64,000 nt of DNA from Enterococcaceae bacterium (GTDB lineage Bacteria; Bacillota; Bacilli; Lactobacillales; Enterococcaceae): positions 38,345 to 102,344 of the forward strand of contig JALCOL010000007.1 in NCBI GenBank assembly GCA_022649665.1. Reading direction: 5' to 3'. The translations under genes were made by a program, and so were the position numbers. Positions 9,848 through 42,608 of this stretch are shown piece after piece (the first letter of the stretch is position 1; each line of letters opens with the position of its first letter). Under the pieces are notes generated by a model. It was not told the origin of the DNA, searched no databases, and saw only the letters and a program-made list of their open reading frames with translations.

Positions 9848-10705
9848 ATGAAAAAGTTTCGCTTGGGATTTTTGCTGGGGATCGGTCTTCTATTGTTTTC
9901 CGCCTGCGCAAAATCGGCAAACACACCGGCAGCAGGTTCGGAAGCGGCCCGTACTGAAAAAACTGCCGCGACACGCGAACAGACTTCAAAGCGCGGCACG
10001 CCGACGGTCTTCATCCATGGATACAGCGGCGGCGAATCATCATTTGGCGGGATGCTCAGCCGCTTTGAAAAGGCCGGGATCAATGAAAGCCGCTACCAGA
10101 TTTTCGTTTCAGCAAACGGCGAGCTTTCGACGAACGGTACGCTCTCCGGAAAGCATCCGCTCGTTCAGCTGTTATTCGAAGACAATCGCAATAACGAATG
10201 GAATCAAGCGGATTGGCTGCAGGCTGGTTTGCAGCTTCTTAAAAAAGACGGCGTCAGCCAAGTCAATTTGGTCGGCCATTCGATGGGCGGTGTCGACATC
10301 ATGCGCTACTTAACAACTTATACGCAAAATGCACAAGTGCCGAAAGTTGCAAAAATCGCTTTGATCGCTGCACCGCTCAATGATTTTATCGATAATAATG
10401 ATCAGAGTTTTGCTGATTTTGAAGCAAATGGTCCGGCCGAGCAGGGGACGCGTTTTCGGGAATTTGCGCAAAAGATCGGGAATTTGCCAGCAGGCTTGCC
10501 GATCTTAGTGATCGCCGGCGACAACGGCACCGGAAGCGACGGCGCAGTCCCGGTCAAAAGTGCTTTGGCGCTGGACGCGCTGGCGAAAAAACAGAAGCTT
10601 GATTATCACAGCGAGCTTTTGGAAGGCGAAAAGATCCAGCACAGCGAGTTGCATGAAAATAAAAAAGTCGATCAACTGCTCAGCCGCTTTTTATGGGATG
10701 AATAA
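9848..10705 (+). CDS. DUF915-type alpha/beta hydrolase lipoprotein
   Basis: About 285 residues. A lipoprotein signal peptide is followed by a lipobox (LLFSAC), so it is anchored outside the membrane. After a low-complexity linker (about 25-55) comes an alpha/beta hydrolase fold: oxyanion region TPTVFIHGYSGGESSF, nucleophile elbow VGHSMGG, a probable acid in VIAGDNGTGSDG and a C-terminal histidine in HSELHEN. This is the DUF915 family common in Lactobacillales; the substrate is unknown. ATG9848 lies 4 bases after nusG with no clear Shine-Dalgarno, so coupled or leaderless-like initiation is likely. Confidence 0.8.
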   Translation: MKKFRLGFLLGIGLLLFSACAKSANTPAAGSEAARTEKTAATREQTSKRGTPTVFIHGYSGGESSFGGMLSRFEKAGINESRYQIFVSANGELSTNGTLSGKHPLVQLLFEDNRNNEWNQADWLQAGLQLLKKDGVSQVNLVGHSMGGVDIMRYLTTYTQNAQVPKVAKIALIAAPLNDFIDNNDQSFADFEANGPAEQGTRFREFAQKIGNLPAGLPILVIAGDNGTGSDGAVPVKSALALDALAKKQKLDYHSELLEGEKIQHSELHENKKVDQLLSRFLWDE

Positions 10706-16067: not shown

Positions 16068-16600
16068 TTATTTTTTTACTCGCTGAAGCATCGGCAGCAA
16101 GATCGTTGCCGCGATGCCGCCGATCAGTGCAGTGATCAGCTGTGGTACAGAGAACATCGTCGTGATCAGCTTCGTCTGCGGCGCAGGCAGCTGCAGGAAA
16201 TAAGGCAGCAGACACTTTGTCACAGTCAAAAACAAGACGAGAAATTTGCAAACAGCACCGATGACGGCAGCCGTGCCGTACTGCAGCCATTGATTTTTGA
16301 TTGGGGTTTTTTGATGATCAAATGCCAAATCACGACCAATACGAGATTCCCGAGGATGATAAAAGGGATCAGCGGCGGCAGTTTCGGCCCGATACCTAAA
16401 AGAAAAGCGAAGATCGGCGAGATCGCAGCGACGACGATGCCGCTTTTTGTATCGATCAGAACTGTTGCGGCAATCAAAACGAAATTGACCAGAGAGCCGG
16501 TCACGAGTTGGCCGAGCGGCGCAGAGAGACTTTGAAAAATGATCAAGATCGCCACGAACAATGCTGTTTGGACGATCCACTTGGCAGGTGAAGTTTTCAT
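16068..16600 (-). pseudogene. ECF transporter S component-like protein, frameshifted
   Basis: The N-terminal part (16600 to about 16310) encodes a hydrophobic start, MKTSPAKWIVQTALFVAILI, and several membrane spans ending in VVIWHLIIKK. The rest (TPIKNQWLQYGTAAVIGAVCKF to QRVKK) continues in another frame down to 16068. The break is at a run of six A on the coding strand (plus-strand T-run 16307-16312); one more A would restore a protein of about 177 residues. The fold resembles ECF S components; the substrate is not recognisable. It begins 38 bases after the hydrogenase gene and is probably co-transcribed with it. A real mutation, a sequencing error or a -1 ribosomal shift are all possible. 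Confidence 0.65.
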
Positions 16601-16621
16601 AAGTGGCTAGCTTCTTTCTAT

Positions 16622-16653
16622 TTTATAATTCTTCGACTTTATAATTCTTCGAC
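16622..16653. repeat. 16-bp tandem duplication spanning the hydA stop codon
   Basis: TTTATAATTCTTCGAC occurs twice head-to-tail, at 16622-16637 and 16638-16653. On the minus strand each unit contains GAA GAA TTA TAA, so the last codons and the stop codon of the hydrogenase gene are duplicated. The first stop is used; the second copy lies in the gap before the ECF gene. Confidence 0.85.
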
Positions 16654-18360
16654 GTTGTGGACAGTGTGCAGTTGATGATGGGCGAGTTCAGAGAGCGGCT
16701 TCCGGTAGTATTCGCGATAGATCTCTTGGATCGAAGGATTTTCATGCGAGAAGCGGAGCTGATCATGCATATCCAGCTTGTACAGTGTTGGTGCGCGTCT
16801 GGCCGCCATTTCCTCGCCGTCGCAGATCGGCTGACCGCCGCCGCCGACGCAGCCGCCTGGACAAGCCATGATCTCAACGAAGTCAAATTGGCATTTGCCG
16901 TCTTTCAGATCTTCGATCAGCTGACGGGTATTGGCAAGTCCGCTGACAACGGCCGCCCGGATCGGTTTGCCGCCAAGTTCGATGGTGACTTCTTTACGAC
17001 CGTTTTGCCCGCGGACCGCTTTGAAATGGTCCGGTTCGGGATTTTTACCGTTGACTAGATAATAAGCGGTTCGCAAAGCGGCCTCCATTACCCCGCCAGT
17101 TGCACCGAAGATCACACCGGCACCGCTCCCGGTTCCAAGCGGCGAATCCAGCTCGATTTCTTCAAAGTCGCGCGGATCCAAAAAGTCGCTTTTCACCATC
17201 CGGTCGAGCTCGCGAGTCGTAAGGGCAACGTCAACATCGGCCGTGCCAAAATCATTTTTCATACTTGGCAGAGCAGCCTCTTCTTTTTTTGCTAAGCAAG
17301 GCATGATCGAAACCGAGAAAACTTTTTTCGGATCGAGATTTTTTTGTTTGGCAAACCAGTTTTTCGTCACTGCCCCGAACATTTGCTGTGGGGATTTTGC
17401 GGTTGAAAGATGATCTGCCAGTTCAGGAAACTCTAATTTGGTAAAACGTACCCAACCTGGGCAGCAGGAAGTGAACATCGGCAAGTCTTCGGGATTTTTT
17501 TGCTGGATGAACTCAAGAAATTCTGAACCTTCCTCCATGATCGTCAAATCGGCACTGAAAGTCGTATCAAAAACATAGTCAAAGCCCATATGTTTCAAAA
17601 CAGCTCCCAGGCGTTCTACGGTCGCTTCTTCGGGCGTCATATGGAACGCTTCGCCCCAAGCCGTTCGGATCGCTGGCGCGATCTGAACGACCGTCGTGAT
17701 CTCAGGATCGGCGATCGCATCGATCACTTGCTGGATGTCGTCGCGTTCATGCAAGGCGCCGACTGGACAATGCGTGATGCACTGCCCGCAAAGCGAACAA
17801 TTGGCTTGTTCGATCGGTTTGTTGTGATGGACCTTGACGGTTGCCTGGGTTCCCGGGTAAGCGACATCCCAAACGTTGAGCGATTGGATATTGTCGCAGA
17901 CTTGGATGCAGCGCATGCATTTGATGCACTTGCTGTTGTCGCGGATCAGCGGAAAATTCTGCGGCCACGGCATCGTATCATATTTTTTGTCAAAATTTTC
18001 CTGGACTACTCCCAGCATATTGGAAAGGTCGCGCAAAGTACAATTGTCTCCGCGCACACAGCTCGTACATTCCACTTTATGCTGGCTCAAAATCAGCTCG
18101 ACATTATTTCGGCGGGCCGCTCGCACGGCAGGACTGTTGGTCCGGATCTCCATGTCATCAGCGGCCGGCGTGTTGCAGGCAGCGACCAGCTGATCTTTTC
18201 CTTCAACTTCAACAACACAGACGCGGCAGGCGCCGATCTCATTTAAATCTTTATAGTAGCAAAGCGTCGGGATATGGATCTTGGCTTGTTTGGCAGCCTC
18301 CAAGATCGTTGTTCCCGCCGGAACTTCAATCGCTCGATTATCGATCGTCAGTTTTACCAT
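16639..18360 (-). CDS. hydA: [FeFe] hydrogenase, catalytic subunit (CpI-like architecture)
   Basis: 573 residues, close to clostridial CpI. Order of modules: N-terminal [2Fe-2S] ferredoxin-like domain (cysteines in CYYKDLNEIGACRVCVVEVEG region), His-Cys3 [4Fe-4S] site (HKVECTSCVRGDNC, about 95), two [4Fe-4S] motifs (CIKCMRCIQVC and CSLCGQCITHC), then the H-cluster domain. All three H-cluster signatures are intact: FTSCCPGW (L1), MPCLAKKEE (L2) and EIMACPGGCVGGGGQP (L3). The C-terminal small-subunit-like tail has EYYRKPLSELAHHQLHT. It should interconvert 2H+ and H2. The HydEFG maturases are not in this window. It overlaps the preceding gene by 7 bases, so it is translationally coupled. Confidence in the reaction is high, physiological direction unknown. 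Confidence 0.95.
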   Translation of the reverse strand: MVKLTIDNRAIEVPAGTTILEAAKQAKIHIPTLCYYKDLNEIGACRVCVVEVEGKDQLVAACNTPAADDMEIRTNSPAVRAARRNNVELILSQHKVECTSCVRGDNCTLRDLSNMLGVVQENFDKKYDTMPWPQNFPLIRDNSKCIKCMRCIQVCDNIQSLNVWDVAYPGTQATVKVHHNKPIEQANCSLCGQCITHCPVGALHERDDIQQVIDAIADPEITTVVQIAPAIRTAWGEAFHMTPEEATVERLGAVLKHMGFDYVFDTTFSADLTIMEEGSEFLEFIQQKNPEDLPMFTSCCPGWVRFTKLEFPELADHLSTAKSPQQMFGAVTKNWFAKQKNLDPKKVFSVSIMPCLAKKEEAALPSMKNDFGTADVDVALTTRELDRMVKSDFLDPRDFEEIELDSPLGTGSGAGVIFGATGGVMEAALRTAYYLVNGKNPEPDHFKAVRGQNGRKEVTIELGGKPIRAAVVSGLANTRQLIEDLKDGKCQFDFVEIMACPGGCVGGGGQPICDGEEMAARRAPTLYKLDMHDQLRFSHENPSIQEIYREYYRKPLSELAHHQLHTVHNVEEL

Positions 18361-20182
18361 GATTGTTTTCTCCCTCCACGAAAGGCTCCATAGCCAAAAT
18401 GATCACAGCGCAAGCAGCGGGACGCTTCTTGCAGTGCTTCTTCTTCCGAATTCGGCAATTCGATATCTTTGAAGTCGTGTTTGCGCTCTTCAGCGGCCCG
18501 TTCATGCAGTTCGACACGCCCGCACGGAACACGGTCATGGAGCAGCGGAGCCGGGATCTCGACGTCAGTTTGGATCTGATGATCGAAGCCCAGATGTTGA
18601 TCGATATTGGCAGCTGCTACTTTGCCGGCTGCGATCGCTTTGATCACGGTCGCCGGACCAGTCACACAGTCGCCCCCGAGAAGACTTTCGGCATTTCATC
18701 GAATTGAGTTTCTTGATTTGGAACTAAACGTCCCCATTTTTCCGGCAGGCCGACTTCAGCGAAAACTTCGCTGTCGATACTTTGGCCGATCGAAACAATG
18801 ACGATATCCGCATCGACTTTGACTTTCGGAATGTCGGCTTTGCGCGGTGCAGGGCGGCCGTTTTTATCGTAAGGACCGATGATCTGCGGTTGGAGCCAGA
18901 TTCCAGTCACATCTTCATTCGCGTCGGTTTCGATCGAAACTGGCGCCATCAGTTCCATGACATCACATCCTTCGGCGATCGCGCCTTCGACTTCAGCCGG
19001 CAGCGCCGTCATATCTTCTTGCCGCCGCCGGTAAGCGATGTGAACGATCTCGGCACCTAAACGGACGGAAGTTCTGGCCACATCCATCGCGACATTGCCG
19101 CCGCCGACAACAACGACGCGTTTGTCTTTGAAGTCCGGCATTTTTCCATCGCCGATCGCACGCAGCATTTCAACAGCGGAGAAGACGCCGCGGCCCTCTT
19201 CGCCCGGGATATTCAAATGTTTTTCTGCATGGGCGCCGATCGCAACATAGATCGCGTCAAAGTCGCGCTGGAGACGTTTGAAGTTGCTTGGCTCATTAAT
19301 GTCCGTATCGGTCTTGATATCAACGCCGGTACTCAAGATCAAATCGATATCACGCTGCAGATTTTCACGGTTCAAGCGGTAGCTCGGGATCCCGTAGCGC
19401 AGCATGCCGCCCAACTGCTGGCGTTTTTCAAACACGGTCGTATCGTGGCCCATCAGCTGCAGATAGAAAGCGGCTGTCAAACCGCTTGGTCCGCCGCCGA
19501 TGATCGCGATCGTTTTGCCGGTCTTCGGATACGGCTGCATCGGCAGCGCGTCCCCGCCGTTTTCAACGGCAAATTCTTTCAAGCCGCGGATATTGATGCT
19601 GCGATCCAGCATATTCCGCCGGCATTTATTTTCGCATGGATGCTCGCAGACATATGCGCAAGCTGTGGGGAAGGGGTTATCTTTGCGGATCACTTTCAAG
19701 GCGTCGGAGTTGCGGTGGTCGCTGATCAGCGCAACATATCCCGGGATATCAACTTCAGCCGGGCATTCTTCAACACATGGAATGCCTTGATGTTCACTCA
19801 AGCAGTACCCGTTGGCAACATGGTTCTCAAAGTCAGAACGGAAGGCGACCACGCAACGCAAAACTTCGGACGCTGCTTGGAAGCCGATCGCGCAATCCGC
19901 TGAATTTTTGATATTTCGCGCAGTTCTTTCGATCAAATCGATCGTTTTGTCCGAACCCTCGCCATGGAGGACCTCATCTAAGAGGGTGCGCAATTGACCG
20001 AGACCGATTCGGCAAGGGACACATTTCCCGCAGCTTTGGCTGTGACAGAGATGGACAAATGCAGAAGCTACTTCGACAGGGCACAGATTGGGCGCAGCAA
20101 AAACACGCCGCTGAATGTTTTGATACAGCTCTTCAGTGACTTTTTCGGCATACGCCTGTGAATGCAATGATAGTCTGTTCAT
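18354..20182 (-). pseudogene. NuoF-tail/GltD-type NAD(P)H:acceptor subunit of hydrogenase, frameshifted
   Basis: A NuoF-like C-terminal iron-sulfur segment (about 45-130, SQSCGKCVPCRIGLGQLRTLL) is fused to a GltD-type flavoprotein. The GltD part has cysteine motifs CVEECPAEVDIPGY and CAYVCEHPCENKC, an FAD loop IAIIGGGPSGLTAAFYL and an NAD(P)H loop VVVVGGGNVAMDVARTSVRLG. It lacks the FMN domain of NuoF. It would pass electrons between NAD(P)H and the hydrogenase. At 18673-18677 a run of five G (coding strand) should be six: as it stands the frame ends after VFSGATV, and the expected GGDCVTGPATVIKAIAAGK continues in the -1 frame to 18354. Restored length is 609 residues. The start has AAAAAGGAG 12 bases upstream. 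Confidence 0.8.
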
Positions 20183-20454: not shown

Positions 20455-20504
20455 TTGACATTCGGCAGGTTTGGCGGTAGAATAGCCAGTGAGAATGATT
20501 ATCA
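20455..20504 (+). promoter_or_regulatory. feoAB promoter with Fur box
   Basis: Consensus TTGACA (20455-20460), 17-base spacer, TAGAAT (20478-20483). Starting at 20490, at the expected transcription start, TGAGAATGATTATCA differs by one base from the 7-1-7 Fur consensus TGATAATNATTATCA. Fur-Fe2+ binding here would repress feoAB when iron is plentiful. Confidence 0.85.
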
Positions 20505-20533: not shown

Positions 20534-20992
20534 ATGAAGTTGTCAGATGCTGCATTGAACCAAGTATATACGATCACCGGATTCCACGGGTTCGCCGGGC
20601 AAGAAAGGCATTTGCATAATCTCGGATTGATCATCGGCGCGAATGTTCGATTGGTCACAATGCATAAGGATGCCGGAATTTTATTGATCCAAAACTCGCG
20701 TTTGGCTTTATCCAGAAAATTGTTGAGCAGCATCGATGTCGAAGAAGGTGAAATCGCCCATCGAGAACGAATGCCGCTTTCCAAAGCAAAATTAGGAACG
20801 ACCGGCAAAGTTGCCGCGATCATCGGTTCAGCAGATATCAAGCGGCGGATCATTGATAAGGGGATCACGAAGGGGACTGAGATCACCGTGAATAAAATCG
20901 CGCCGCTCGGCGACCCGCTCGAAGTTCAAGTCAGAGGATACAAAATGAATTTACGAAAAGAAGAAGCAGATTTGATCATGGTGGAGGTCTAG
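20534..20992 (+). CDS. feoA: Ferrous iron transport protein A (double FeoA domain)
   Basis: 152 residues, twice the usual 75, consisting of two SH3-like FeoA units (about 1-72 and 78-152; the second has LGTTGKVAAIIGSADIKRRIIDKGITKGTEITVNKIAPLGDPLEVQVRGYKMNLRKEEADLI). FeoA is a cytosolic partner that supports FeoB. ATG20534 follows GGGAGCGG. It is first in a Fur-controlled operon; feoB begins 4 bases after its stop. Confidence 0.93.
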   Translation: MKLSDAALNQVYTITGFHGFAGQERHLHNLGLIIGANVRLVTMHKDAGILLIQNSRLALSRKLLSSIDVEEGEIAHRERMPLSKAKLGTTGKVAAIIGSADIKRRIIDKGITKGTEITVNKIAPLGDPLEVQVRGYKMNLRKEEADLIMVEV

Positions 20993-20995
20993 TTG

Positions 20996-23155
20996 ATGAA
21001 AAATGAAAAAAAAATCAATGTTGCGCTCGCCGGCAATCCGAACAGCGGGAAGACGAGCTTGTTCAACGGATTGACCGGAGCTGCTCAATATGTTGGGAAC
21101 TGGCCTGGGGTTACGGTTGAAAAAAAATCTGGTGTTTACCGCAATGATTCACGAATCGTCATTCAGGATCTTCCTGGTTGCTATTCGCTTTCCCCGTACA
21201 CTTCAGAAGAGATCGTTTCGCGGGATTATTTGATCCAAGGAAATCCGGATGCAGTCGTCGATGTTGTTGATGTAACGAATTTAGAACGTCATCTATACTT
21301 GACGACGCAGTTGATCGAAACTGGTCATCCGGTCGTGATGGCGCTTAATATGATCGACTTGCTGGAAAAAGATAAAAAAGCCGGTATCAACGTTGAGAAA
21401 CTTTCTTATGCATTGGGGATCCCAGTCATTGAAACAAGCGCCGTCAAAAATAAAGGATTAGTCCAATTGATGGAAGCTGTTGCTAAGCGCGTTGAAGACT
21501 CATCTGCTAAGATCCAATATCCGGACTACAGCAGTCAAGTCGAAAGCGCCTTGTCTGAAATCGGCAAAGTGATCAAAGACAATGTTGCGCCGGACAAGCT
21601 TCGCTGGTACAGCATCAAACTTTTTGAACGCGATGACAAAGCAAAAAAAGAAGTCGAGCTGAATGGCAAACAGCTGCAAGACATCGAAGACATCATCGGG
21701 ATCGTCGAAAAGTTGAAGATGGATGATTCTGAGTCGGTCATCGTCAATGAGCGCTATGATTACATCCATCGCGTCGTTGAACTATGCATGGTCGACCGCT
21801 CAGTAGCTGCGGCGAACTTGACGGACAAGATCGACCGCATCATCACCAATAAATGGCTTTCGGTTCCGATTTTTGCCTTGATCATGTGGGCAGTCTACTA
21901 CTTGTCGATCCAAACGGTCGGCACGTGGGGAACAGATTGGATCAATGATCAGCTTTTCGGGAAATGGGTTCCTGATTTTCTGAATACTTGGATGCAGAAC
22001 ATGAACGTCGCCGCATGGCTGCAGGACTTGGTACTGAACGGTGTCATCGCCGGTGTCGGCGCAGTCCTCGGCTTCCTGCCGCAGATCGTTGTATTGTTCC
22101 TCTGTTTGAGCTTTTTGGAAGATTGCGGCTACATGGCGCGGATCGCTTTTGTTATGGACCGGATCTTCCGCAAAGTCGGGCTTTCCGGCAAACAATTCAT
22201 TCCAATGCTGATCGCAACAGGCTGCGGTGTTCCAGCAGTGACGGCTACTCGAACGATCGAAAATGAACAAGATCGCCGGATCTCGATCATGGTCACGACA
22301 TTCATTCCTTGTTCGGCGAAATTGCCGATCATCGGCTTGATCGCCGGCGCCTTCTTCCCGCATTCCAGCTGGGTCGCGCCTTCTGCATACTTTGTCGGGA
22401 TCGCTGCGATCATCCTTTCGGGGATCGGTTTGAAGAAAACACGCTTCTTCTCTGCAGATGCCGCACCATTCATCATGGAACTGCCAAACTACCATCTGCC
22501 GAACTTGCGCAATGCGCTCCTGCAAACTTGGGATAAAGCAAAGGGCTTCATTCATAAAGCTGGAACGATCATCTTCGTTTCCAGTATCGGGATCTGGTTC
22601 TTATCTACGTATAATTTCCGTCTGCAAAATGCCGGCGAATCCAACAGCATTTTAGCCAATATCGGACATGTCGTTGCCCCGATCTTTAAGCCATTAGGCT
22701 GGGGAACTTGGCAAAATACCGTGGCCGTCTTTACCGGACTGGTCGCGAAAGAAAATCTGCTCGGGACGCTTGGGATCCTCTTCGGGTCACAAGTTGCCAG
22801 TGAAAACGGCACCGAGATCTGGACGCAATTGCGGGCTGCGATCTCGCCGGTAGCCGGCTACTCGTTTTTGATCTTCAATCTGCTTTGTGCGCCATGTTTC
22901 GCTGCGATCGGTTCGATGTACCGCGAAATGGGCAGTGCAAAATGGACTTGGGGTGCGATCGCTTATCAATGCGGTCTGGCTTATGCAGTCAGCTTTGTGA
23001 TCTATCAAATCGGCTCAGTCCTCTTTGAAGGAGCAGCTTTCAATATTGCTACGATCTTGGCACTTCTAGTTATCGCGCTCGGCATCTACTTCATCGTTAG
23101 AAAACCGAAAGCACGTCAACATTCTTTGGGAAAATTAGCGAATGATGCGCTTTAA
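20996..23155 (+). CDS. feoB: Ferrous iron transporter FeoB
   Basis: 719 residues. N-terminal G domain: G1 AGNPNSGKTSLFN, G3 DLPGCYSL, G4 NMID. A GDI-like helical linker spans about 170-270, and the membrane permease with two Gate motifs starts at about 285 (LEDCGYMARIAFVMDRIFRKVGLSGKQFIPMLIATGCGVPAVTATRTI, and the FIPCSAKLPI region). It imports Fe2+ under anoxic or low-iron conditions. ATG20996 sits 8 bases after GGAGGT. It is followed by a small Cys-rich membrane peptide gene. Confidence 0.96.
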   Translation: MKNEKKINVALAGNPNSGKTSLFNGLTGAAQYVGNWPGVTVEKKSGVYRNDSRIVIQDLPGCYSLSPYTSEEIVSRDYLIQGNPDAVVDVVDVTNLERHLYLTTQLIETGHPVVMALNMIDLLEKDKKAGINVEKLSYALGIPVIETSAVKNKGLVQLMEAVAKRVEDSSAKIQYPDYSSQVESALSEIGKVIKDNVAPDKLRWYSIKLFERDDKAKKEVELNGKQLQDIEDIIGIVEKLKMDDSESVIVNERYDYIHRVVELCMVDRSVAAANLTDKIDRIITNKWLSVPIFALIMWAVYYLSIQTVGTWGTDWINDQLFGKWVPDFLNTWMQNMNVAAWLQDLVLNGVIAGVGAVLGFLPQIVVLFLCLSFLEDCGYMARIAFVMDRIFRKVGLSGKQFIPMLIATGCGVPAVTATRTIENEQDRRISIMVTTFIPCSAKLPIIGLIAGAFFPHSSWVAPSAYFVGIAAIILSGIGLKKTRFFSADAAPFIMELPNYHLPNLRNALLQTWDKAKGFIHKAGTIIFVSSIGIWFLSTYNFRLQNAGESNSILANIGHVVAPIFKPLGWGTWQNTVAVFTGLVAKENLLGTLGILFGSQVASENGTEIWTQLRAAISPVAGYSFLIFNLLCAPCFAAIGSMYREMGSAKWTWGAIAYQCGLAYAVSFVIYQIGSVLFEGAAFNIATILALLVIALGIYFIVRKPKARQHSLGKLANDAL

Positions 23156-23425: not shown

Positions 23426-23440
23426 ATAGGGGTGAAGGTA

Positions 23441-25267
23441 ATGAAAGGAAAAACAAAAAAATGGCTCTTGGGGACCGCACTTTTTGCCGGGTTGCTCTTG
23501 AGTCCAGTCGGCGCAAAACAGGCTGATGCGGCTGACTCTTGGTATTGGAACGGCGACTATTGGACGTATGTCAATGAACAAGGTAATTATCTATTCGGCT
23601 GGCAGGCGATCGGCAACACGTGGTACTATTTCGATGCCGGAACAGGAAAGATGCACACCGGCTGGCTGCAATTGGGTGATGCTTGGTATTATCTAGAAGA
23701 CAGCGGGATCATGGCGACCGGAACGCTTACGATCGGCGGCACAGTTTACAACTTTGATGCTTCCGGCAAATGGATCGAAAATCCAAGTCCCGTGGTCAAA
23801 AAAGGTTGGCAATCAGAAGGCGGCCAGTGGTACTTTTATGACAACGGTCAAAAACAATTCGGCTGGCTGCGCGACGGAAATAGCTGGTACTTCTTAAACA
23901 CCGCTTCCGGTGCGATGCAAACCGGCTGGCAGACGATCTCGGGCAATTGGTATTTCTTCAATCCGAGCGGCGTGATGCAAACCGGCTGGCTGAATGACGG
24001 GGGTACTTGGTACTATCTGCTGGCAGACGGGTCGATGGTAACTGGCGACTATACGATCAATGGCCAAACTGAACGCTTCGATGCTTCTGGAAAATGGACC
24101 GGACCAGTTGCAAGCGACGGCTGGAAGAATGAAAGCGGTACTTGGTATTATTACAAGAATGGGACCAAACAAACCGGCTGGCAAAATGTAAATGGTACAT
24201 GGTACTTTATGGATACCCAAGGCGCAATGCAGACCGGCTGGCAGACAATCAGCAGCCTGAAATTTTATTTTAGTGCAAACGGTGCGATGCAGACGGGCTG
24301 GCTGAATGATGGCGGCAGCTGGTACTTTCTTAGTGCAGGCGGCTCGATGGTGACCGGCGATTATACGATCAACGGTCAAACTGAACGCTTCGATGCTTCG
24401 GGAAAGTGGCTCGGTCCAGTTGTAAATGAAGGCTGGAAGAACGAAAACGGCAGCTGGTATTATTACAAAAATAATATCAAACAAACGGGTTGGCAATTGG
24501 TCAACAATGTTTGGTATTATATGAATCCTCAAGGAGTAATGCAAACGGGTTGGCAGATGATCAGCGGCCATTGGTATTGTTTTGATAATGGCGGCGCGAT
24601 GCTGACGGGCTGGCAAGCAATTACTGGCAGCTGGTACTTCTTTGATAATGGCGGCGCGATGCAAACGGGTTGGCTGCAGTTGGGCAATGATAAGTATTAT
24701 CTGCGCACAGATGGGTCGATGGTGACCGGCAGTTATACGATCGCGGGCGTCGTTTACAACTTCGATACTTCAGGTCGTTTGATCGGCAACACGCCTTCCG
24801 GCAACCGGACCTATACGAATGCGGTATATGGCGGCAGCAAAATCACGAACGCCGGGATCGCTAAAGAGTTCATCAATGTCATCAATGAGTATCGGACGCA
24901 AAATGGGTTGACGACTTTGCCGTTCAATCAAGAAGTGGCTGATGTTGCCAATGAATGGGCGCTCAGCGACACGAAAGAGGCTTCTCCGCTCTCTTGGCAG
25001 CCGTTTCACAGTTGGGCTGGCGACGGGGCATTGCTGTTCACAAATGACAGCAGCGGCAAGTCTGATCGGCAAATCGCTGAAGACGCGCTGCAGTATCTGC
25101 TGAAGAACAATCCAAATGGCGGATTTGAAGCAAATCTTTTGGATAAGAGAAATATGGGGATCGGGACTTCGGTTTATGTTAAAAAATATACGGCAAGTGA
25201 TTATGGCTTCATGATCATCGTTGAGTTCAAAAATCCTGCAAAACCGAATAATCGTCCAATTGGATAG
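23441..25267 (+). CDS. Secreted cell-wall-binding-repeat protein with CAP (SCP/PR1-like) domain
   Basis: About 608 residues. A Sec signal peptide ends near GAKQADA. From about 30 to 460 the protein is built of some twenty aromatic repeats of about 20 residues (pattern GWQ..NG.WYYF...G.MQTGW), like the choline- or glucan-binding repeats of streptococcal surface proteins. A longer unit of about 100 residues is duplicated (NDGGTWYYLLADGSMVTGDY and NDGGSWYFLSAGGSMVTGDY). The C-terminal 140 residues (FINVINEYRTQNGLTTLPFNQEVADVANEWA) resemble a CAP domain. The protein probably sits non-covalently on wall polymers. ATG23441 follows AGGGGTGAAGG. Ligand and activity are unknown. Confidence 0.8.
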   Translation: MKGKTKKWLLGTALFAGLLLSPVGAKQADAADSWYWNGDYWTYVNEQGNYLFGWQAIGNTWYYFDAGTGKMHTGWLQLGDAWYYLEDSGIMATGTLTIGGTVYNFDASGKWIENPSPVVKKGWQSEGGQWYFYDNGQKQFGWLRDGNSWYFLNTASGAMQTGWQTISGNWYFFNPSGVMQTGWLNDGGTWYYLLADGSMVTGDYTINGQTERFDASGKWTGPVASDGWKNESGTWYYYKNGTKQTGWQNVNGTWYFMDTQGAMQTGWQTISSLKFYFSANGAMQTGWLNDGGSWYFLSAGGSMVTGDYTINGQTERFDASGKWLGPVVNEGWKNENGSWYYYKNNIKQTGWQLVNNVWYYMNPQGVMQTGWQMISGHWYCFDNGGAMLTGWQAITGSWYFFDNGGAMQTGWLQLGNDKYYLRTDGSMVTGSYTIAGVVYNFDTSGRLIGNTPSGNRTYTNAVYGGSKITNAGIAKEFINVINEYRTQNGLTTLPFNQEVADVANEWALSDTKEASPLSWQPFHSWAGDGALLFTNDSSGKSDRQIAEDALQYLLKNNPNGGFEANLLDKRNMGIGTSVYVKKYTASDYGFMIIVEFKNPAKPNNRPIG

Positions 25268-42407: not shown

Positions 42408-42438
42408 TACAGACTTTATCAAACATGTTTTATAGCTC

Positions 42439-42608
42439 AACCTAGTAATAATTACTAAGACAGTCCGACAGATATTCTCCGCCGGCCCAACATATTTTTT
42501 GCGAGGACAAAAAATACATTTCGGCAAAAAGACCTCCTCGTTTGTTCAAAGCATCCTCATGCTCCCGCGGATTCATTCTTTTTGCGACCTCTACCTACAT
42601 TTCAGGTT
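42439..42608 (-). promoter_or_regulatory. Lysine riboswitch (L box)
   Basis: Reading the minus strand from 42608, the characteristic L-box pieces appear in order: AGGTAGAGGTCGCAA, a GGAGG...TTTTTGCCGAAAT block, GGGCCGGCGGAGAA, and CTGTCGGACTGTC. The base of P1 is AACCT (42608-42604) with AGGTT (42443-42439). A downstream terminator suggests transcription stops when lysine binds. This links the following ABC transporter to lysine. Confidence 0.8.

What the first reader, a model, noticed from the sequence alone, without database searches (positions are those of the whole stretch)
16068..20182. [FeFe] hydrogenase operon in a lactic-acid-type genome
Seen: a 573-residue protein with all three H-cluster signatures and the full CpI-style iron-sulfur relay. 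It is translationally coupled to a NuoF-tail/GltD-type flavoprotein and followed by an ECF S component. Known: such hydrogenases are common in clostridia but not a standard part of Enterococcaceae-like genomes; the electron-transfer partner here lacks the FMN domain of bifurcating HydB. Inferred: it would link NAD(P)H and H2 directly, giving an alternative electron sink to lactate (ldh is in the same window). The ECF partner's role is unexplained.
Basis: partly seen in the sequence, partly recalled or inferred. Interest (0 to 1): 0.75.

Follow-up and report, generated by a model that had tools for sequence, protein, structure and literature searches.

The report
[FeFe] hydrogenase with its own transporter
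An Enterococcaceae bacterium carries a hydrogen-enzyme gene of a type also found in clostridia, followed by the gene of a small membrane protein built like vitamin-uptake subunits; in 105 genomes of this family that protein was found in exactly the 23 in which a hydrogenase of this class was found, so it likely serves the enzyme, perhaps by importing something needed to make it, although in this assembly both partner genes are split by frame changes.

Summary
The hydrogenase is real: HydA (16639-18360, minus strand) is intact with all three H-cluster motifs and the full Fe-S relay, and HydE, HydF and HydG lie elsewhere in the genome. The NuoF-tail/GltD partner and the ECF S component are also real, but in this assembly each is split by a frame change; near-identical intact copies exist in databases. 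By gene partner it is HydDB group A2, whose role HydDB calls undetermined. Enterococcaceae do have such enzymes: 23 of 105 family genomes carry a group-A HydA. Ten of the other 22 were compared and are 44-46% identical to the window's; four whose gene order was read have HydABC operons. The new result concerns the ECF protein. It occurs in exactly the same 23 of 105 genomes, always on the hydA contig, and in other Bacillota it also lies beside stand-alone and NuoE-HydB-HydA hydrogenases. It seems to follow the hydrogenase, not its electron partner. I propose that it imports a molecule that hydrogenase-making cells need. The substrate is unknown; the closest known fold is the riboflavin S component RibU.

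The parts
16639..18360 (-). hydA: group-A [FeFe] hydrogenase catalytic subunit, 573 aa, intact
18662..20182 (-). N-terminal piece (506 aa) of the NuoF-tail/GltD-type flavoprotein gene; reading frame changes near 18670, at a G run
   Evidence: intact copy P0121 (609 aa)
18354..18665 (-). C-terminal piece of the same flavoprotein gene, in another frame; holds the C-terminal CLRC motif and overlaps the hydA start by 7 nt
16298..16600 (-). N-terminal half of the split ECF S-component gene, starting 38 nt after the hydA stop
   Evidence: intact copy P0283 (177 aa)
16068..16290 (-). C-terminal half of the split ECF S-component gene, in another frame
20490..20504 (.). Fur-box-like palindrome in the region shared with the divergent feoAB genes (pattern recalled)
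   Evidence: one site matched on both strands, 0.07 matches expected by chance

Best explanation
The locus is a GltD-linked (HydDB A2-type) [FeFe]-hydrogenase operon in an Enterococcaceae genome with all three maturases; its flavoprotein would pass electrons between NADP(H) and HydA, and its ECF S-type membrane protein likely imports a small molecule that cells need when they make [FeFe] hydrogenase. Shown: the gene order, the motifs, the maturases, the S-component fold of the predicted model, and the co-occurrence and proximity of this ECF family with [FeFe] hydrogenases of several architectures. Inferred: the direction of electron flow (most likely NADPH to H2, as a fermentative electron sink beside PFOR, Nfn, Rnf and formate dehydrogenase); NADP rather than NAD; transport by the ECF protein; and a substrate used for the H-cluster or another need common to all these hydrogenases. 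Also inferred: an ancestor of this genome exchanged a HydABC-type enzyme, as in its relatives, for GltD-HydA while keeping the family's ECF gene. In the assembled strain the flavoprotein and ECF genes are frame-split, so the operon may be inactive there.
Against: 201 of 309 HydA-positive genomes in the phylum sample lack the ECF family, so it is not generally required. 66 of the 80 ECF loci fetched have no HydA-like match over 100 bits within 6 kb, and the maturases were seen near only 1 of 80 (L179, a 109-bit HydG-like match), which speaks against a tight link to maturation genes. HydDB suggests NAD and H2 oxidation for group A2, not NADPH and H2 evolution. No riboswitch clue was found; EcfA/T genes were not searched. 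The 80 loci were 80 of 117, mostly by score; G113 and G432 were picked although low-scoring because searches had already shown hydA beside them. Without these two the figures are 12 of 78 by tblastn and 8 of 78 clear group A. Co-occurrence statistics ignore phylogeny. Contig C21 ends soon after PFOR, and its first 8 kb was not read. In this assembly both partner genes are split.
Confidence: 0.55

Rival explanations
1. The ECF protein is an ordinary riboflavin or flavin importer that serves flavoenzymes (HydB FMN, GltD FAD, NfnAB, flavodoxin), and its place beside hydA is an indirect consequence.
Against: In L120 and L162 the gene follows a stand-alone hydA with no flavoprotein subunit in the stretch read. 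Nfn genes are near 0 of 80 and PFOR near 1 of 80 phylum loci. Identity to RibU is 13-16%, too low to infer a substrate.
Confidence: 0.25
2. The operon is a decaying relic in this strain: the frame splits are real mutations and the hydrogenase no longer couples to NAD(P)H.
For: Two splits in one operon, with intact near-identical copies in other database sequences. In 296 kb of own sequence the ECF gene is the only junction where the upstream frame stays open about 60 nt past the switch while the downstream frame is open more than 300 nt back. One relative, G093, has an in-frame stop in its ECF gene.
Against: Both splits lie at homopolymer runs, where assemblies err. The frame scan is not sensitive: the GltD split itself looks there like an ordinary gene overlap. 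hydA is intact.
Confidence: 0.4
3. The A2 enzyme bifurcates or confurcates: its GltD-like subunit, related to the large Nfn flavoprotein, would couple NADPH and ferredoxin to H2.
For: Sequence matches to Nfn subunits 5jca_L and 5vj7_A over residues 134-532 and to 8oh5_C (recalled as the Sporomusa Stn complex) over 121-595; PFOR, an NfnB-like protein and RnfC in the genome imply a ferredoxin pool.
Against: No second flavoprotein subunit in the operon; no biochemistry for A2 seen in the papers found.
Confidence: 0.15
4. The ECF-type protein anchors the hydrogenase at the membrane or signals, and does not transport.
For: It sits beside different hydrogenase types.
Against: The fold matches solute-binding S components; 66 of 80 homologues fetched stand without a HydA-like match over 100 bits within 6 kb.
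Confidence: 0.07

Closest known systems
HydDB [FeFe] group A2, glutamate synthase-linked (PMC5037454; passages seen)
   Same: Group-A HydA paired with a GltD-type flavoprotein; HydDB lists its role as undetermined.
   Different: HydDB's rule looks at the protein downstream of HydA; here the flavoprotein gene is upstream and an ECF S component is downstream.
Enterococcaceae HydABC operon with flavodoxin-like, NfnAB and PFOR genes (L047, L048, L051)
   Same: Same ECF S clade beside hydA; the window genome has the flavodoxin-Nfn-PFOR island on another contig.
   Different: HydA is only 44-46% identical where compared, with NuoE- and NuoF-type subunits; the ECF gene is convergent with hydA, not co-directional.
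Clostridial gltD-hydA pairs (L044, L045)
   Same: 609-612 aa NuoF-tail/GltD protein overlapping hydA by 7 nt; HydA best segments 59-60% identical to the window's.
   Different: Flavoprotein gene in one frame in both (L044's hydA is itself broken). No ECF gene after hydA in L045; L044 ends 0.4 kb after hydA, so it cannot tell.
ECF S components RibU, PanT, ThiT
   Same: Same fold over nearly the whole chain.
   Different: 12-17% identity for these; substrate not inferable; here in an operon with [FeFe] hydrogenase.

Membership tests
HydDB [FeFe] group A2 | Group-A HydA with the three H-cluster motifs | tested here: met
HydDB [FeFe] group A2 | Neighbouring GltA/GltD-type protein | tested here: met
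   PRK12771 and gltA-family matches; gene upstream of hydA, frame-split in this assembly
HydDB [FeFe] group A2 | Classifying protein lies immediately downstream of HydA | tested here: not met
   downstream gene is the ECF S component; so described as 'A2-type by partner', not as a member by HydDB's literal rule
HydDB [FeFe] group A2 | No NuoF domain in the partner | tested here: inconclusive
   NuoF Fe-S tail PF10589 present, PF01512 not among the matches; nuoF_fam 48.8 bits against a cut-off of 558.65
NCBIfam NF040763, NADH-dependent [FeFe] hydrogenase group A6 | Score over the curated cut-off of 765 bits | tested here: not met
   753 bits; the HydABC-type HydA of L047 scores 897.1
Bifurcating HydABC (A3) | NuoE- and NuoF-type subunits in the operon | tested here: not met
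   none at this locus; in the own-genome stretches fetched, such matches occur only in a formate dehydrogenase operon; the rest of the genome was not searched for them
ECF S component (PF12822) | Family score over cut-off | tested here: met
   intact copy P0283 38.5 bits against 30.7
ECF S component (PF12822) | S-component fold | tested here: met
ECF S component (PF12822) | Works with EcfA/EcfA'/EcfT and binds a substrate | not tested
   no search for EcfT or EcfA was run; binding needs experiment

The most novel reading that the evidence does not exclude
[FeFe] hydrogenases have a dedicated ECF transporter: this S component imports a building block or cofactor for making the H-cluster (from memory, candidates are lipoate for the lipoyl-H-protein route to the dithiolate bridge, or the tyrosine used by HydG), and lineages that swap their whole hydrogenase keep it.
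Probability: 0.25. Interest if true: 0.85.

Novelty: new variant of a known kind. Interest (0 to 1): 0.6.

Why it matters
The hydrogenase itself is a new member of a poorly understood known type in an unusual host. The ECF association would point to an unrecognised nutrient need for [FeFe]-hydrogenase biogenesis or use, testable by one deletion and one binding screen, and could explain which growth media allow H2 production. Searches of the held library for the combination returned 1 and 4 papers, one of them shared. I saw passages of that one (PMC7478625), which do not describe such a link, and saw the other three only as listings.

Tried and rejected
'No maturases, so inactive': rejected. 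'HydA inherited with the family's HydABC': not supported by the tree or by 44-46% identity. Tree limits: 60 rows were planned and 43 used; 17 were dropped (L044 because its frame is broken, 16 because a strict motif filter missed them), so only 4 Enterococcaceae and 1 other Lactobacillales HydA stand for those groups. Riboswitch clue to the ECF substrate: at gathering thresholds 35 loci gave five T-boxes and one rli28 match, none leading an ECF gene; the window has lysine, 23S-methyl and L10 elements. PDB sequence search with the ECF profile: best E 0.99. Named genome scan with HydA: only 2 loci. Plasmid search: best match 56.3% identity, on a record labelled Collinsella aerofaciens. In the ECF tree, 32 of 98 rows carry the 'linked' label; three of these (L138, L172, L187) lack a full set of H-cluster motifs, L185 resembles group B, and P0297 is labelled linked only because its contig length equals that of P0002. 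L120, L121 and L162 lack the exact CPxGC motif; L120 and L162 read CSGGC. The first motif regex was too strict and was replaced. The GltD-like model (pLDDT 80.8) was not searched further. Literature on hydrogenases in lactic acid bacteria and Enterococcus: listings only, no title or abstract start on this locus. One search was an idle script.
Full report
OBSERVATION. The window lies in a 2.37 Mb draft genome of 26 contigs. The nearest solved chain by sequence is an electron-bifurcating HydA1 (8a6t_A, 552 bits), with CpI-type 'Iron hydrogenase 1' chains at about 417 bits.

FRAME SPLITS. The flavoprotein gene is split near 18670 and the ECF gene near 16300. Near-identical intact proteins are in the protein database: P0121 (609 aa; one difference over the first 498 residues) and P0283 (177 aa; one difference over the parts compared). 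The database HydA P0001 differs by one residue. The window thus shows one strain or assembly of an organism that also has intact copies. The C-terminal part cut off from the flavoprotein holds the end of the pyridine-nucleotide domain match and a CLRC motif invariant in 32 aligned relatives. A Fer4_20 match lies at residues 134-207, and a weak one (22.2 bits, below cut-off) to the start of the same domain lies in the C-terminal piece. A 296-kb frame scan of own sequence found no other equally clear split, but the scan is not sensitive. Whether the splits are real is open.

CAN IT WORK? All three maturases lie together on contig C3. Elsewhere the genome has PFOR with a flavodoxin-NfnA-NfnB island, a second 2-oxoacid oxidoreductase, RnfC over cut-off, and a formate dehydrogenase operon with a NuoF-type subunit. 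A ferredoxin and NAD(P)H economy is thus encoded. That electrons flow from NADPH to H2 is inference. The GGGNVA motif fits the NADP(H) assignment proposed for related flavoproteins in PMC7483475 (passages); HydDB instead suggests H2 oxidation with NAD for A2.

ORIGIN. In the family, 23 of 105 genomes have a group-A HydA over cut-off. In the four relatives whose gene order I read, HydA sits with HydB and NuoE-type subunits (L047, L048, L050, L051). In the order sample, 14 of 395 genomes match at E<=1e-80; the 13 others, 10 of them in the family, are 44-46% identical. The remaining 12 of the 22 family relatives were not compared for identity. The tree puts the window HydA with P0002 ('Lactobacillus sp.' MAG), P0003, P0004 and P0006 (100/100), in a clade with clostridial proteins and far from the HydABC type. 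A GltD-like protein from Loigolactobacillus rennini (P0124) is 63% identical. The simplest reading is one or more transfers of a GltD-HydA unit into Lactobacillales; the donor is not resolved.

THE ECF PROTEIN. In the family it occurs in 23 of 105 genomes, the same 23 as HydA, on the same contig and 3' of hydA in all 23. It is convergent with hydA in 22 and co-directional only in the window, so the neighbourhood was kept through a change of orientation and of hydrogenase type. In the phylum sample of 398 genomes, 108 of 110 ECF-positive genomes have HydA, against 201 of 288 ECF-negative. The two exceptions, G438 and G460 (79 and 87% complete), belong to one genus whose third ECF-positive member, G242, has HydA. 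Of 117 non-own matches I fetched 80, mostly by score. 14 have a HydA-like match over 100 bits within 6 kb, the nearest on the same strand in all 14. After closer scoring 10 are clear group A (one of them, L137, a partial gene at a contig start), one resembles group B, and three are doubtful. Two of the ten (G113, G432) were picked with knowledge of the neighbour; without them, 8 of 78. For a chance rate of 1.5-3%, my rough estimate from about three hydA genes per genome, that is 2e-5 to 2e-3, relatedness ignored. Near the same 80 loci, PFOR was seen once, Nfn never and a HydG-like match once. Gene orders show the ECF gene after a lone hydA (L120, L162), after hydA in a NuoE-HydB-HydA set (L168), before such a set (L115, L122), and after GltD-HydA (window). 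The common factor is the hydrogenase itself. The predicted model is a confident S-component fold, closest to RibU.

MECHANISM. I commit to import of a small molecule that hydrogenase-producing cells need and that some lineages do not make. That 201 of 309 HydA-positive genomes lack the gene fits an optional importer that covers a missing synthesis. That maturases are rarely beside it (1 of 80) is a point against a narrow H-cluster role. The substrate is unknown. Lipoate and tyrosine are candidates from general knowledge of H-cluster biosynthesis (recalled, not looked up); riboflavin is the rival suggested by fold.

KNOWN OR NEW. HydDB already holds GltD-linked hydrogenases as A2 with 'undetermined role' (PMC5037454, passages). 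The host and the ECF link are the new parts; library searches gave no paper on the link that I could see (PMC7478625 passages; the others as listings only).

CHANGES ON CHECKING.

Noticed in passing
window 20534-23155 (+): feoA and feoB (ferrous iron uptake) are divergent from the hydrogenase operon, with a Fur-box-like palindrome at 20490-20504 in the shared region.
   Followed up: partly
L206 (G000:C21:8000-24754): Flavodoxin-NfnA-NfnB-PFOR island at the end of contig C21; upstream ORFs resemble selenium/molybdenum accessory genes (read by eye only).
   Followed up: partly
L207 (G000:C13:40000-54000): Rnf-type gene cluster (RnfC over cut-off; neighbours by eye) in an Enterococcaceae genome; RnfB was not identified in the stretch.
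   Followed up: no
L061:7707-14959 (G000:C5): Formate dehydrogenase operon: formate/nitrite-family transporter, NuoF-type subunit, FdhA (878 bits) and a MoeA-like protein.
   Followed up: partly
L054 (G093), about 10007-10525 (-): The hydrogenase-linked ECF gene of this relative carries one in-frame stop.
   Followed up: no
G010, G013, G003, G018 hydrogenase loci: 4.9-11.3 kb lie between the HydA match and the ECF gene instead of under 0.6 kb; content not read.
   Followed up: no
window 23432-25267 (+): 611-aa protein of many choline-binding-like W/Y/G repeats with a C-terminal domain, by eye.
   Followed up: no
window 42425-42601 (-): Lysine riboswitch (84.3 bits).
   Followed up: no
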